Below, piece after piece: positions 11,318-25,829 of a DNA stretch of 51,504 nt. Every line of letters starts with the position of its first letter. The first letter of the stretch is position 1. The DNA is from Tatlockia sp. Lineage in GTDB: Bacteria; Pseudomonadota; Gammaproteobacteria; Legionellales; Legionellaceae. The stretch covers positions 1 to 51,504 of the forward strand of contig JACCWI010000036.1 of NCBI GenBank assembly GCA_013697725.1. The letters are read 5' to 3'. A program made the position numbers and the translations under genes. The notes beneath the pieces were generated by a model, which saw only the letters and a program-made list of their open reading frames with translations, was not told the origin of the DNA and did not search any database.

Positions 11318-12391
11318 ATGACTTTGCTTCCTTTTGAACAATCACTGGCATATAAAAAAATCTTAATTACCGGACATACTGGTTTTACGGGCAGCTGGGC
11401 TTGTCTATGGTTGCAGTCAATAGGCGCTCAGATAGCTGGCTATTCTTTGCCGCCAGAGACTGAGCCGTCCTTATTTAAGGTTTTAGACTTAGAAAATTCT
11501 GTGGCTACTACTTTTTCAGATCTTTGTGATTACGAAAGTGTATTAAAGGCAGTAGATAGTTTTCAACCAGAAATTATTTTACATCTTGCAGCACAACCCT
11601 TAGTGAGGCGTTCTTACGAAGAGCCTGTGCGTACTTTTGCTGTAAATTCCCAGGGCACTGTTCATGTGCTTGAAGCCGCTCGTTTGGTTAAATCAGTGCG
11701 TGCTGTAGTCTGTGTGACAACGGATAAAGTCTATAAAAATAATGAATGGTTATGGCCTTACCGTGAAGATGATCCACTAGGCGGCAAAGATCCTTACAGT
11801 GCATCTAAAGCAGCTGCTGAAATGATTATTCAAAGCTATGCTGCTTCTTACCCCTGGCAAGAAAATAAAGGCCCGGCCATTGCTATCGCTCGGGGAGGTA
11901 ATATTATCGGGGGAGGAGATTGGTCTGAAGATCGTTTGATACCTGATTTTGTTCGAGCCGTTACGGCAGAGAAAACCATGACGCTCAGATACCCCGAGGC
12001 AACAAGACCCTGGCAGCATGTGCTCGCTTTAGTCCAAGGTTATTTGATGTTAGCAGCAGGTTTAATTTCTGAAAAGCCAGCTAATTTTGCGAGAGCCTGG
12101 AATTTAGGGCCTCATGAATCAGTTTCTTATTCAGTTAGAGGCGTTCTTGAGTTAATGAGCAGCTGCTGGCAGCGGCCTTCTTTAAATTACATGCAAAACC
12201 CCTACCCTGAAGCGCAAGCTTTAGCTTTGGATAGTTCCTTGGCAAAAATACTATTAAACTGGAGTCCAGTGTGGGATACCAAAGAGGTGATTGCAAAAAC
12301 AGCAGCATGGTATTGCGAATATTATGCGAATCCGTCAGCTTCAAAGCAGTTTACGCTTAAGCAGATTGAAGCTTGGAGGGCTGGAATTTAG
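11318..12391 (+). CDS. rfbG: CDP-glucose 4,6-dehydratase
   Basis: 357 residues, the length of RfbG/DdhB. The Rossmann motif ITGHTGFTGSWACLWL (residues 17-32) is characteristic of this enzyme rather than of dTDP- or GDP-sugar dehydratases. The catalytic block VTTDKVYKN (133-141) and Tyr160-Ser-Ala-Ser-Lys164 follow. It converts CDP-D-glucose to CDP-4-keto-6-deoxy-D-glucose, the branch point to 3,6-dideoxyhexoses. A GAGG site precedes the ATG. It is alone on this strand, 13 kb from its supplier rfbF and the next-step enzyme (rfbH-like), so the pathway is scattered across several transcription units. Confidence 0.95.
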   Translation: MTLLPFEQSLAYKKILITGHTGFTGSWACLWLQSIGAQIAGYSLPPETEPSLFKVLDLENSVATTFSDLCDYESVLKAVDSFQPEIILHLAAQPLVRRSYEEPVRTFAVNSQGTVHVLEAARLVKSVRAVVCVTTDKVYKNNEWLWPYREDDPLGGKDPYSASKAAAEMIIQSYAASYPWQENKGPAIAIARGGNIIGGGDWSEDRLIPDFVRAVTAEKTMTLRYPEATRPWQHVLALVQGYLMLAAGLISEKPANFARAWNLGPHESVSYSVRGVLELMSSCWQRPSLNYMQNPYPEAQALALDSSLAKILLNWSPVWDTKEVIAKTAAWYCEYYANPSASKQFTLKQIEAWRAGI

Positions 12392-12417
12392 CGAGTACTT
12401 TAGTTTATTCCGCTCAT

Positions 12418-14295
12418 TCAAGCTTTGGCTAAAGGCTTATCATTGCTTGTAAAATATCTCGCCTGTCGCATAATTTCACTGGGTTTTAAAGCCTCTGAAA
12501 CCAGTTTATTAAACGGTTTAATGGGGTAAAATACAATTTGTTTATTTTGACTTTCCAAGCTTGGTTGATATCCTAATAATTGATTCAACTGTTTGATTAA
12601 ATCATTAGCATTATCACTAAAACCACGACGGTCAATATAAATTCCTGAAAAACCCAGACGCTTAATTACATCAAGTTGCTTCACAAGGGGTTCCTCAAAT
12701 AGCTTTCGATAAAATAAATCACCCTCACGACCTTTTATTCCTGCGTGGCTCCATTTTAAAGTTTTAGAATTAACAAAACCTCGGAGTAAATCATAGTCTG
12801 CTAAATTTTTATAAGGGCCATATTCAGGAAAACCCATGTAAGGAAGCTGATAGATAGCAGAGCCTGGAGGTAGGGAGGACTCAAGCCTAGATATAAATAT
12901 TCTATCCTCCTTAAAAGCTTCTTTGGCAGCATAAGTTTGAGGCGCTAAAGTTAGGGGAGTTTGATCCAGGAGACCAAAAATGAGGAGGAGGGCAACAAAA
13001 GAATTGAAAATTAATTTATTGTTTTTATGAAAAAATTCCAGGGTCTTATTTTCTTGCAATAGAAAAAATACAGTAGTTAAAGTCGCAAAGGAAATGAAAA
13101 TACTAATTCTGTTCCATCCTCTAATAAGCTTGGAAATATAAAGAGCAAAGAAGACGTTAAAACCGCCAACGCTAGCGATTAACAGATAAGCCAAGATGAG
13201 AAATGAAAGATATCGTAAACGAATATCAATTTGTTTCCCAAGTGCAGCCTTGAAAATACATAAAATAAGGATGATTAAACCGAGGGAGCCTATCAAACCA
13301 AGGGAAGAAGAAAAAGTGGCCTCCGTGACATCGAAGTTATTGGTATAACGCCAAAAGATAGACTTGATTTTATCAACGCGATGATTCCAAATCGGCAAAA
13401 AAAGAGGTGCGATTTTTAGTGAATAGGTTTCGGTTTCTTTAAGAAGGCGATAGCCGGCCTCACGATTAGGTCCATTGTTAAATTTATAAATGGCAGTAGG
13501 TAAAAGGTTTAGACCAACGCCAAAAGCAAGCATAGCTGTTAAGAATAAAGAGGCATAAAACCCCTGTAATTTATTTTGGCTAATTGCAGCAGCAATGCCT
13601 GAAACAATAAAAGTAATTACACCAAAAAAGGCATAATAAACACCAAAAGAACTTAAAACTATCAGAGTTGCCAGAAGTATCGATATTTTCTTTAGATTAT
13701 TAAGTGGCCAAACTAAAGGAGCATTAAAAAAAATTTTCCAACCCAATAGACAATAAATAGGCACGACAAAGTACCAAGTATAATAGATGTGCCCTAACAA
13801 CCTCCACATATGGAAAGGGGCAAAACTAAATAGAATGGCTGCTGAAAAAGCATAGAAGGCTCGGAAAGAAAGAGCACGGAAAACCAAAAAACTCACGGCG
13901 AAGACAACAACAAAACTGGTTAATAAATACAGGTTCAAAGCCCCATAGAAGGTGCCTGTTACTAATGAGAATAATTTTAAAATTACCAGATTGCCATTAT
14001 CTGCTTGGGGGTAATCAAAAAAGATAGAACCAAAAGGGTAGCCACTACGTGAATTATCGAAAATCCAACCTTCAAGAACACGCTGAATTTCCCAGGACAT
14101 AAAGATACTATCCGCCCCATAGACATAAGGATAATTTAAGTTAGGAATAAAACCTGCTTTAAGTCCCGCATGCCAGCCTGAAAATAATGCGCTCGCGTAG
14201 AAAAAGCAAAAAATAGAACCTGCTAAAATCCATTTCCAATCTAATCTAAGTGATTGCCAAAAAGGTGGATTTTCAACTTCTATTCTTTTTTCCAT
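12418..14295 (-). CDS. Large polytopic membrane protein, possible GT-C-type transferase
   Basis: 625 residues from the ATG at 14295. About eleven membrane spans fill residues 20-450, followed by a soluble C-terminal domain of about 170 residues. The first periplasmic loop contains YVYGADSIFMSWEIQRVLEG and SGYPFGSIFFDYPQADNGN, acidic spots that in GT-C enzymes hold the catalytic Asp. GT-C proteins use polyprenyl-phosphate sugars outside the cytoplasm. That fits the GtrA/GtrB-like pair encoded at 21.3-23.7 kb, but no named family could be assigned. It is 38 bases downstream of another large membrane protein gene and probably co-transcribed. Confidence 0.6.
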   Translation of the reverse strand: MEKRIEVENPPFWQSLRLDWKWILAGSIFCFFYASALFSGWHAGLKAGFIPNLNYPYVYGADSIFMSWEIQRVLEGWIFDNSRSGYPFGSIFFDYPQADNGNLVILKLFSLVTGTFYGALNLYLLTSFVVVFAVSFLVFRALSFRAFYAFSAAILFSFAPFHMWRLLGHIYYTWYFVVPIYCLLGWKIFFNAPLVWPLNNLKKISILLATLIVLSSFGVYYAFFGVITFIVSGIAAAISQNKLQGFYASLFLTAMLAFGVGLNLLPTAIYKFNNGPNREAGYRLLKETETYSLKIAPLFLPIWNHRVDKIKSIFWRYTNNFDVTEATFSSSLGLIGSLGLIILILCIFKAALGKQIDIRLRYLSFLILAYLLIASVGGFNVFFALYISKLIRGWNRISIFISFATLTTVFFLLQENKTLEFFHKNNKLIFNSFVALLLIFGLLDQTPLTLAPQTYAAKEAFKEDRIFISRLESSLPPGSAIYQLPYMGFPEYGPYKNLADYDLLRGFVNSKTLKWSHAGIKGREGDLFYRKLFEEPLVKQLDVIKRLGFSGIYIDRRGFSDNANDLIKQLNQLLGYQPSLESQNKQIVFYPIKPFNKLVSEALKPSEIMRQARYFTSNDKPLAKA

Positions 14296-25010: not shown

Positions 25011-25061
25011 TTTAATTTCCTTTAAAATTAATAGCTTAACTAAGAATTATCAATATAAATT

Positions 25062-25829
25062 CTACCAGGTTTTCCAAGGCGCATTACCTGCGTTCCAAAG
25101 TTCTTCCAAATAATTTTTATCGCGAAGAGTATCCATAGGATGCCAAAAACCATCATGATGAAAAGCGGTTAATTGACCCTCTGCAGACAAGGATTCAAGA
25201 GGAGCTTTTTCCCAAATTGTTTCATCATCCTCAATGTATTCGATAACTTTTGGCGATAAAACAAAAAAACCACCATTAATCCATCCGCCATCACCCTGTG
25301 GTTTTTCTTTAAAACCTTTTACTGATTCATTTTCAATCAGCAAAGAACCAAAACGACCTGGAGGTTGAATTGCGGTTAAAGTTGCTAATTTTTTATGATC
25401 TTTATGAAAGGCAATTAAAGAAGTTATATCAACATCGGAAACGCCATCGCCATAAGTTAGACAAAAATCTTCATCACCTAAATGTTTGGCTGCGCGCTTT
25501 AAACGACCACCAGTCATGGTCTGCTCACCGGTGTCTACTAAAGTAATCAGCCAGGGTTCGGCATTGTTTTGATGGATTTCCATTTTGTTATTGCTAATAT
25601 CTAAGGTAACATCTGACATATGTAAAAAATAATTAGCAAAATATTCTTTAATTACATAGCCTTTATAACCCAGACAAATTACAAAATTATTGATGTTATG
25701 AGTAGAATAAAGCTTCATAATATGCCAAAGGATAGGTTTTCCACCAATTTCAATCATCGGTTTGGGACGTAAACCCGTTTCTTCACTTATTCTAGTACCT
25801 AAGCCACCTGCTAGTATTACTGCTTTCAT
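25062..25829 (-). CDS. rfbF: Glucose-1-phosphate cytidylyltransferase
   Basis: 255 residues from the ATG at 25829, with AAGGA eight bases upstream; an in-frame TTG at 25847 is unlikely. MKAVILAGGLGTRISEETGL and RPKPMIEIGGKPILWHIMK are the nucleotide- and sugar-phosphate-binding blocks of RfbF/DdhA. TGGRLKRAAKHL, TYGDGVSDVD and the late FWHPMDTLRDKNYLEELW are diagnostic. It makes CDP-D-glucose from glucose-1-phosphate and CTP, the entry step to the pathway continued by rfbG (11.3 kb) and the adjacent rfbH-like gene. Its length is normal (about 257). Confidence 0.97.
   Translation of the reverse strand: MKAVILAGGLGTRISEETGLRPKPMIEIGGKPILWHIMKLYSTHNINNFVICLGYKGYVIKEYFANYFLHMSDVTLDISNNKMEIHQNNAEPWLITLVDTGEQTMTGGRLKRAAKHLGDEDFCLTYGDGVSDVDITSLIAFHKDHKKLATLTAIQPPGRFGSLLIENESVKGFKEKPQGDGGWINGGFFVLSPKVIEYIEDDETIWEKAPLESLSAEGQLTAFHHDGFWHPMDTLRDKNYLEELWNAGNAPWKTW

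What the first reader, a model, noticed from the sequence alone, without database searches (positions are those of the whole stretch)
11318..25829. Dispersed CDP-sugar pathway for a yersiniose-type branched octose
rfbF, rfbG and an rfbH-like 3-dehydrase, a TPP enzyme of YerE type and an SDR reductase are all present but in separate transcription units. Together they predict CDP-glucose, then 4-keto-6-deoxy, then 3-deoxy, then two-carbon addition from pyruvate, then reduction. From memory yersiniose A occurs in L. micdadei and L. maceachernii lipopolysaccharide, which would match.
Basis: partly seen in the sequence, partly recalled or inferred. Interest (0 to 1): 0.7.

Follow-up and report, generated by a model that had tools for sequence, protein, structure and literature searches.

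The report
Iron-sulfur-free route to yersiniose sugar
A bacterium of the Legionella family carries a gene set predicted to build the rare branched eight-carbon sugar yersiniose A for its cell surface, with a sugar-dehydrating enzyme that lacks the iron-sulfur cysteines of its known counterpart and so likely works without that enzyme's partner reductase.

Summary
rfbF, the RfbH-like gene and the SDR gene lie in one minus-strand run with a GtrB-like glycosyltransferase and gtrA; only rfbG and the TPP gene stand apart. The TPP enzyme is YerE-like, not an acetolactate synthase: 43% identical to PpYerE (448 bits) against 33% for E. coli IlvI/IlvB, and in the YerE part of the tree. Of 61 relatives at 40% identity or more, 58 have rfbF, rfbG or rfbH within the fetched flanks; none of 8 weaker ones has. 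TPP, RfbH-like and SDR genes occur in the same 8 of 22 genomes of the genus, including L. maceachernii and, by protein identity, L. micdadei, the two species reported to carry yersiniose A. The finding missed two things. First, the RfbH-like enzyme keeps the catalytic histidine but has none of E1's [2Fe-2S] cysteines, and the genome shows no E3-type reductase; a ColD-like, glutamate-recharged mechanism is inferred. Second, the GtrB-like/GtrA pair suggests delivery through undecaprenyl phosphate. Sugar, donor and mechanisms are untested.

The parts
25062..25847 (-). rfbF/ddhA: glucose-1-phosphate cytidylyltransferase (TTG start as listed)
   Evidence: TIGR02623 468.8 bits, cut-off 300.25; in the minus-strand run
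11318..12391 (+). rfbG/ddhB: CDP-glucose 4,6-dehydratase
   Evidence: TIGR02622 434.6 bits, cut-off 278.45; in 9 of 22 genomes of the genus, the 8 with the module plus G013
23787..25010 (-). RfbH-like, cysteine-free, predicted PMP-dependent CDP-4-keto-6-deoxyhexose 3-dehydrase; catalytic-type His185 in SFYGSH
   Evidence: E1 3bcx 220.5 bits, ColD 151.9 bits; E1 EDCCD -> EDSAD, RDWGRDCYCAPGC -> RSWGRSSSLFVES; tree; model pLDDT 89.1, best PDB match E1
19502..21241 (+). YerE-like ThDP-dependent enzyme (first ATG 19514); canonical GDG...NN motif and HHEQ glutamate
   Evidence: 5ahk 473.7 bits, next best 303.7; tree; motif
21733..22797 (-). extended SDR, candidate ketoreductase of the two-carbon branch
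   Evidence: Pfam Epimerase 107.6 bits; SGGTGFFG and YALGK motifs; directly beside YerE-like genes in 4 non-Legionella loci
22794..23747 (-). GtrB/PgfS-like polyprenyl-phosphate glycosyltransferase (GT2)
   Evidence: Best PDB match glycosyltransferase sll0501 (5ekp/5eke) 163.6 bits, ArnC-type about 100-104 bits; NF047588 PgfS 190.2 bits, below its cut-off of 500
21330..21728 (-). GtrA-like small membrane protein, candidate flippase
   Evidence: PF04138 51.4 bits, cut-off 26.1
12418..14301 (-). multi-spanning membrane protein (627 aa), candidate GT-C transferase; weak evidence
   Evidence: 8 hydrophobic stretches, no Pfam match; orthologs near the TPP gene in L006, L007, L008 and G014, not seen in L003-L005; structure model failed (pLDDT 40)
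14340..16142 (-). multi-spanning membrane protein (600 aa), second candidate GT-C transferase; weak evidence
   Evidence: 10 hydrophobic stretches, FSGDD motif, no Pfam match; orthologs in L006 and L008 among L003-L008
28166..30186 (-). Wzt (with C-terminal domain) and Wzm: ABC exporter of the polysaccharide
   Evidence: PF14524 76.4, PF00005 80.7 and PF01061 91.2 bits

Best explanation
This is a CDP-sugar module that likely makes CDP-yersiniose A (or a very close branched 3,6-dideoxy-octose) and, by a YerE-like enzyme, would add a two-carbon unit from pyruvate at C-4. Steps: RfbF makes CDP-glucose and RfbG makes CDP-4-keto-6-deoxyglucose (assigned from clear family membership, not assayed). 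The RfbH-like enzyme would remove the C-3 hydroxyl (inferred). Because it keeps the catalytic histidine but has none of the [2Fe-2S] cysteines of E1, and no E3-type reductase was found in the genome, it would not use the E1/E3 electron relay; instead the PMP intermediate would be hydrolysed and PMP restored with glutamate, as in ColD (inferred). The TPP enzyme would then join a two-carbon acyl unit to the 4-ketone (inferred from clade and context), and the SDR would reduce the acetyl branch to hydroxyethyl (inferred from context only). Last, the GtrB-like enzyme would move the octose to undecaprenyl phosphate, GtrA would flip it, and a GT-C-like membrane enzyme would attach it to the polysaccharide exported by Wzm/Wzt (inferred, weakest step).
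For: Families. TPP enzyme with PpYerE and away from IlvI, IlvB, Gcl and PoxB. Context: 58 of 61 TPP relatives at 40% identity or more have at least one of rfbF, rfbG, rfbH within the fetched flanks, 50 of 61 all three; 0 of 8 relatives at 26-31% (a 70th locus, L072, gave no TPP ORF). Co-occurrence: TPP, RfbH-like and SDR in the same 8 of 22 genomes of the genus; two sets of 8 placed at random in 22 agree with probability 3.1e-6, kinship ignored. L. maceachernii (L007 = G012) and G014, whose three proteins are 99.8, 99.8 and 100% identical to ones named L. micdadei, hold the module; review PMC7867332 (passages) reports yersiniose in these two species. Cysteines: grouped by the His motif alone, 50 of 50 RfbH proteins with SFYPxHH in the other loci (L072 included) have all the E1 cysteine positions, while 6 of 6 with SFYGSH (the Legionella loci) have none; 120 of 120 listed homologs lack the loop cysteines. 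One supported clade (100/100). CDP context outside Legionella: of 369 genomes of the class, 8 besides the window's matched; 6 of these 8 have the gene directly after rfbF-rfbG. No E3: the only Fer2 match of the genome is a 784-aa NuoG-like ORF; the same in 5 of the 8 module genomes. No ALS small subunit. GtrB-like/GtrA; close GtrB-like genes also in TPP loci L015, L017, L031, L050, L055 and in L094, L095, L097.
Against: No sugar, enzyme or gene was tested. The TPP enzyme is in another clade than PpYerE (beside it), 43% identical, so donor and product may differ; related enzymes use other 2-keto acids (PMC12247030, passages). NCBIfam ranks the TPP enzyme nearest acetolactate synthase, and the RfbH-like enzyme is under its family cut-off. 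42 of the 120 homologs keep one cysteine, at the place of the second Cys of EDCCD; the window protein has Ala there. 3 of the 8 module genomes have one extra Fer2 protein of 322-328 aa; so do 7 of the 14 without the module (320-325 aa). Of five cysteine-free non-Legionella loci with long flanks, two (L096, L099) show no TPP gene and three (L094, L095, L097) have one only 33% identical to the window's (a sixth, L098, is too short to tell). 12 of 61 TPP loci show neither the YerF-type nor a window-type SDR. Only 7 of 61 have GtrA and 11 of 61 a close GtrB-like gene, 6 of each being the Legionella loci. In the fold search several sugar aminotransferases rank between E1 and ColD. The GT-C role of the membrane proteins rests on topology alone; profile comparison with two GT87 proteins of other loci found nothing.
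Confidence: 0.73

Rival explanations
1. Same pathway up to the 3,6-dideoxy ketone, but the TPP enzyme uses a longer or hydroxylated 2-keto acid (as ErwE, MMAR_2332 or JanthE can), so the product is a different branched sugar.
For: The clade is not the PpYerE clade. YerE-like enzymes differ in donor (PMC12247030 passages). Cysteine-free RfbH locus L097 carries a JanthE-type TPP enzyme (788.5 bits to 8rph) and L095 one of the same size and CDG motif; L097 has an HMGL/DmpG-like aldolase and an acetaldehyde dehydrogenase beside it, a plausible source of 4-hydroxy-2-oxovalerate.
Against: The window enzyme has GDG, not CDG; no such aldolase/dehydrogenase pair among the 25 window ORFs (of 52 listed) that were scanned with Pfam; the enzymes of the two species with reported yersiniose lie in the same supported 10-row clade.
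Confidence: 0.13
2. The SDR is a C-4 ketoreductase making an ordinary 3,6-dideoxyhexose (abequose/paratose type), and the TPP enzyme acts in a separate route.
For: SDR and RfbH-like genes are in one run with the TPP gene outside it. L096 and L099 have cysteine-free RfbH without a TPP gene in view.
Against: SDRs of this type lie 9-41 bp from YerE-like genes in L017, L020, L037 and L062, in L037 where related loci have the YerF-type gene. SDR and TPP genes occur in the same 8 of 22 genomes.
Confidence: 0.09
3. The TPP enzyme is an acetolactate synthase of branched-chain amino-acid synthesis or catabolism, and the neighbourhood is a coincidence.
For: Best NCBIfam model is TIGR00118 (490.6 bits, below cut-off).
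Against: Nearest solved relative, tree, missing small subunit and conserved context.
Confidence: 0.02
4. The RfbH-like enzyme works with the GDP-mannose branch (Gmd-type genes are nearby), as ColD does for colitose.
For: Gmd-type genes at 31613-32635 and 8458-9540; no Fe-S cysteines; Ser-His pair as in 10 of 12 ColD-like rows.
Against: It is nearer to E1 than to ColD by score, tree and fold; outside Legionella it follows rfbF-rfbG directly in 6 of 8 class hits.
Confidence: 0.05

Closest known systems
YerE-like ThDP lyases (YpYerE, PpYerE; PDB 5ahk)
   Same: Neighbouring clade, canonical ThDP motifs, position beside rfbF/rfbG/rfbH-type genes
   Different: 43% identity to PpYerE; own clade that also holds Bacteroidota, Chloroflexota and other rows; activity untested
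E1 / DdhC / RfbH CDP-4-keto-6-deoxyglucose 3-dehydrase (PDB 3bcx)
   Same: Fold, catalytic-type His, CDP-glucose operon, nearest clade
   Different: No [2Fe-2S] cysteines, Ser instead of Ala before the His, no E3-type reductase found in the genome
ColD, GDP-4-keto-6-deoxymannose 3-dehydratase
   Same: Catalytic His without iron-sulfur cluster; Ser-His pair
   Different: Separate clade, GDP context, lower similarity (151.9 vs 220.5 bits)
Yersiniose cluster of Yersinia and Pseudomonas (ddhA-D, yerE, yerF)
   Same: rfbF/ddhA, rfbG/ddhB, a 3-dehydrase, YerE-like enzyme and an SDR
   Different: No ddhD found, cysteine-free 3-dehydrase, SDR not orthologous to the one taken for YerF, genes split over two strands, GtrB-like/GtrA pair added
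GtrA/GtrB/Gtr* three-component periplasmic glycosylation (PMC11127046, passages)
   Same: GtrB-like transferase and GtrA in one operon, multi-spanning membrane proteins nearby, ABC-exported polysaccharide as in the Klebsiella case
   Different: Donor would be a CDP-branched octose; the third component is not identified
JanthE (PDB 8rph)
   Same: JanthE-type enzymes sit near the same cysteine-free RfbH in L097 and, by motif and size, L095
   Different: Window enzyme has GDG and is nearer PpYerE (473.7 vs 282.3 bits)

Membership tests
YerE-like ThDP lyase | Groups with PpYerE apart from acetolactate synthases in a tree | tested here: met
   (quick tree, SH-aLRT only); the program warned of long branches, among them PpYerE and EcIlvI
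YerE-like ThDP lyase | Gene lies with CDP-3,6-dideoxyhexose genes | tested here: met
   Window, and 58 of 61 relatives
YerE-like ThDP lyase | Adds an acyl unit from a 2-keto acid to CDP-4-keto-3,6-dideoxyglucose | not testable with these tools
   Needs an assay
E1 (DdhC/RfbH) 3-dehydrase | Catalytic histidine in place of the aminotransferase lysine | tested here: met
   SFYGSH, aligned with SFYPAHH of E1
E1 (DdhC/RfbH) 3-dehydrase | Four cysteines binding [2Fe-2S] | tested here: not met
   None of the aligned cysteines is present in the window protein; which four bind the cluster is taken from conservation and recall
E1 (DdhC/RfbH) 3-dehydrase | Partner reductase E3 (Fer2 plus flavin) | tested here: not met
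   Only a NuoG-like Fer2 ORF matched in the genome (control rings in 12 of 14 genomes)
E1 (DdhC/RfbH) 3-dehydrase | Score over the NCBIfam RfbH cut-off | tested here: not met
   321.4 vs 423 bits
ColD | No Fe-S cluster; glutamate restores PMP | tested here: inconclusive
   Absence of cysteines shown; recharging by glutamate not testable here
ColD | Membership of the ColD clade and GDP context | tested here: not met
   ColD-like rows were named by motif, no named ColD was in the tree
Yersiniose A pathway | rfbF, rfbG, 3-dehydrase, YerE-like enzyme and a reductase in one genome | tested here: met
Yersiniose A pathway | Ortholog of the YerF-type SDR | tested here: not met
   No match of L024:11721-12656 in the genome (a search without positive control); that this protein is YerF is inferred from its place after the YerE-like gene
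Yersiniose A pathway | Yersiniose A in the polysaccharide | not tested
   Reported for L. micdadei and L. maceachernii (PMC7867332, passages), not known for this strain
Three-component Gtr system | GtrB-like polyprenyl-phosphate transferase and GtrA | tested here: met
   (by sequence)
Three-component Gtr system | GT-C transferase | tested here: inconclusive
   Multi-spanning proteins of 627 and 600 aa, no family match, failed model for the first
Biosynthetic acetolactate synthase | Regulatory small subunit in the genome | tested here: not met

The most novel reading that the evidence does not exclude
A widespread, previously unrecognised branch of nucleotide-sugar 3-dehydrases does the E1 reaction on CDP sugars with no iron-sulfur cluster and no E3 reductase, recharged by glutamate like ColD, and feeds YerE/JanthE-type enzymes; the resulting branched octose is delivered through undecaprenyl phosphate by a GtrB-like/GtrA pair, a new class of cargo for three-component glycosylation.
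Probability: 0.45. Interest if true: 0.7.

Novelty: new variant of a known kind. Interest (0 to 1): 0.56.

Why it matters
It would give a gene-level explanation for a sugar reported in Legionella lipopolysaccharide in 1992, for which our searches of the held library found no described genes. It also predicts an exception to the rule that 3-dehydration of CDP sugars needs E1 plus E3, recognisable from sequence and present in bacteria well beyond Legionella, and it points to which enzymes to assay. The GtrB-like/GtrA link would extend periplasmic glycosylation to branched deoxysugars.

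Tried and rejected
Rejected: TPP enzyme as acetolactate synthase. Rejected: RfbH-like enzyme as a lysine aminotransferase (His aligned with the E1 His that the H220K entry alters; separate 100/100 branch). Rejected as evidence: the structure model of the 627-aa membrane protein (pLDDT 40) and profile comparison of the membrane proteins with the GT87 proteins of L095/L097 (E 0.33-0.42). A search for E3 genes near classical E1 loci with a Fer2-like pattern found one ORF, so 'no E3 beside the operon' is not informative by itself; the genome-wide Fer2 search was used instead. The genome-contig scan listed no L. micdadei locus although a 75% protein exists, so species missing from that scan were not counted as negatives. 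Linkage by equal contig lengths (30 lengths shared by the TPP and RfbH-like lists, 0.42 expected by jitter) is only a lower bound, as both lists stop at 120; the SDR list was typed with 118 of its 120 rows. The promoter/terminator scan (26 promoter-like sites against 34.2 in shuffles, 15 terminator-like against 11.4) was not used beyond the hairpin note.

Rows left out: the TPP tree took 16 of the 120 listed homologs, and of the loci only ORFs over 500 aa and 150 bits; the RfbH tree took 15 of 120 homologs and ORFs over 330 aa and 88 bits (of 76 RfbH-type ORFs over 88 bits, one E1-type fragment, L049, fell to the length filter). In one search loci were split at 40% TPP identity; no locus lies between 31% and 40%. 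In the earlier grouping E1-type rows were defined partly by their cysteines, which is circular; regroups by the His motif alone.

Full report
1. What is there. The window is contig C49 of a 3.01-Mb genome, 100% complete by the tool's estimate; its nearest named relatives in the scan are Tatlockia/Legionella. The five enzymes named in the finding are present. rfbF (25062-25847-) and rfbG (11318-12391+) pass the cut-offs of their NCBIfam models. The RfbH-like protein (23787-25010-) and the TPP enzyme (19502-21241+) do not pass the cut-offs of their nearest models. rfbF, RfbH-like, a GT2, the SDR and gtrA form one co-directional run (gaps 51, 39, -4, 4 bp) after GT4, Wzm, Wzt, GT4 and GT2 genes, so the finding's 'separate transcription units' applies to rfbG and the TPP gene only.

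2. The TPP enzyme is YerE-like. Its best solved relative is 5ahk (473.7 bits; next 303.7, acetolactate synthase isozyme 1). Depositors call 5ahk an acetolactate synthase; that it is PpYerE is recalled, supported by PMC8541089 (passages), which says that PpYerE of Pseudomonas protegens has been crystallised and is 59% identical to YpYerE. Pairwise, the window enzyme is 43% identical to that chain (448 bits), 33% to IlvI and IlvB, 29% to Gcl, 24% to PoxB. In a quick tree of 92 rows it lies in a 39-row clade (97) beside a 39-row clade with PpYerE (99); these two and one long branch (L019_5686) form a 79-row group (99), and IlvI, IlvB, Gcl and PoxB lie outside it (the program warned of long branches, PpYerE among them). 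The genome has one other TPP homolog, beside PoxB in the tree, and no match to the acetolactate synthase small subunit.

3. Context across bacteria. A scan of species genomes gave 70 loci. One (L072) yielded no TPP ORF. Of the other 69, 61 have a TPP protein at 40% identity or more: 54 of 61 have rfbF, 54 rfbG, 55 an RfbH-type gene, 50 all three and 58 at least one, within flanks that are often cut by contig ends. The 8 at 26-31% have none. The three without any are L011, L019 and L031.

4. Link to the sugar. In 22 genomes of the window's genus, the TPP enzyme, the RfbH-like enzyme and the SDR are found in the same 8; rfbG in those 8 and in G013. At family level only the TPP enzyme was counted: 13 of 140. 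G014 holds proteins 99.8, 99.8 and 100% identical to TPP, RfbH-like and SDR proteins named L. micdadei. Both have rfbF - RfbH-like - GtrB-like - SDR - gtrA in this order, with the TPP gene within 7 kb of gtrA and rfbG 15-19 kb from the TPP gene. The review PMC7867332 (passages) names yersiniose as a species-specific sugar of L. micdadei and L. maceachernii, citing Sonesson and Jantzen 1992 (title seen in the reference list only). The match is by species, not by strain, and the window's own strain has no sugar data here.

5. The unusual 3-dehydrase. E1 and SpnQ bind [2Fe-2S] through four cysteines and use a reductase; ColD has no cluster and restores PMP with glutamate (PMC8987622, passages). 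The window protein keeps the catalytic-type His but has EDSAD for EDCCD and RSWGRSSSLFVES for RDWGRDCYCAPGC. Sorted by the His motif alone, 6 of 6 SFYGSH proteins of the scan (the Legionella loci) have no cysteine at these places, while 50 of 50 SFYPxHH proteins have them all. The 120 listed close homologs all have SFYGSH and none has a cysteine in the 20 residues after WGR; 42 of them keep one cysteine in the first motif (EDSCD). In the tree (bootstrap/SH-aLRT) the 22 cysteine-free rows form one branch (100/100), next to E1 (95/82) and apart from 12 ColD-like rows. The residue before the His is Ser in this family and in 10 of 12 ColD-like rows, and in 0 of 49 E1-type rows; a ColD entry names S187 beside H188. 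The model is good (pLDDT 89.1) and matches E1 best (TM 0.89), with sugar aminotransferases and ColD at 0.79-0.85 among the 50 matches shown; the stretch 221-226, in the loop that replaces the cysteines, is under pLDDT 50. Outside Legionella, 369 genomes of the class gave 8 further hits; 6 (55-72%) have SFYGSH and follow rfbF-rfbG directly, which argues for a CDP substrate; the 2 at 42-46% do not, in flanks of about 1.5 kb. The window's genome has a single Fer2 match, a 784-aa NuoG-like ORF (NuoG is my reading of length and family). The same is true of 5 of the 8 module genomes; 3 have one more, of 322-328 aa, and a similar one (320-325 aa) occurs in 7 of the 14 genomes without the module. A ColD-like reaction on a CDP sugar is therefore my inference.

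6. The reductase. The SDR is not an ortholog of the SDR near YerE-like genes in 25 of 61 loci that I take for YerF (the name is inferred from its place and from PMC4509608, passages, on Pseudomonas WCS417). SDRs of the window type at 36% or more are in 10 of 61 loci, 6 of them Legionella; in the other 4 they touch the TPP gene (9-41 bp). 14 of 61 have only a more distant SDR match and 12 of 61 none. PMC4753412 (passages) said in 2016 that the ketoreduction of yersiniose was not characterised.

7. Delivery. The GT2 is nearest to the glycosyltransferase sll0501 (163.6 bits) and then ArnC-type enzymes; that sll0501 is the GtrB structure is recalled. gtrA closes the run. Close GtrB-like genes are in 11 of 61 TPP loci, 6 of them Legionella, and within about 7 kb of the cysteine-free RfbH in L094, L095 and L097. 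GtrA, GtrB and a GT-C enzyme make up a three-component system, known also with ABC-exported polysaccharides (PMC11127046, passages). Candidates for the GT-C enzyme are the 627- and 600-aa membrane proteins; Tatlockia loci L003 and L005 have other proteins of 641 and 619 aa with 10-11 hydrophobic stretches between rfbG and the TPP gene. No family or fold supports them.

8. Donor. L097 pairs the cysteine-free RfbH with a JanthE-type TPP enzyme (788.5 bits to 8rph; that 8rph is JanthE is recalled) with the CDG motif that PMC12247030 gives as JanthE's mark; L095 has an enzyme of the same size and motif, L094 one with GDG. L097 has an HMGL/DmpG-like gene and an acetaldehyde dehydrogenase next to it. 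The window enzyme has GDG, and no such pair was seen among the 25 of 52 window ORFs scanned, which fits pyruvate as donor, weakly.

9. Verdict. The finding is real and its reading mostly right; [quoted passage not shown] New here, as far as our searches show, are the iron-sulfur-free 3-dehydrase family in CDP operons, the tie of this YerE-like clade to the species with yersiniose A, and the GtrB-like/GtrA pair. I found no paper on genes for this sugar in Legionella nor on a cluster-free CDP 3-dehydrase (listings only, apart from the passages of PMC8987622) in the held library, which lacks most subscription papers.

Noticed in passing
window 6366-11029: ManC/PMI (9581-11029-), Gmd-type (8458-9540-), an epimerase/reductase-family protein (7509-8489-) and a GT4 (6366-7505-): a likely GDP-mannose to GDP-6-deoxyhexose set beside the module.
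   Followed up: no
window 16154-17260 and 17559-19460: Two AT3 acyltransferases, the second fused to SGNH and directly upstream of the TPP gene; possible O-acylation of the same polysaccharide.
   Followed up: no
window 12418-14301; L006 5656-7917: The L. nautarum ortholog (753 aa) of the 627-aa membrane protein carries a C-terminal DUF7024 domain (112.6 bits); the window protein is shorter and has no Pfam match.
   Followed up: partly
L095 2630-4501, L097 3032-6852: JanthE-type TPP enzymes near cysteine-free RfbH operons, in L097 with a DmpG-like aldolase and an acetaldehyde dehydrogenase: a possible operon-encoded supply of a hydroxylated 2-keto acid donor.
   Followed up: partly
L094 6824-7750: A Rieske-domain protein (25 bits) between the SDR and the TPP gene of a cysteine-free RfbH operon; role unknown.
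   Followed up: no
G013:C1:543729-544799: A genome of the genus has a close rfbG (80%) without the TPP, RfbH-like or SDR genes at the thresholds used.
   Followed up: no
L024 and L058, TPP loci with classical E1: Classical E1 with its cysteines but no E3 gene seen beside it; where the reductase is encoded was not found.
   Followed up: partly
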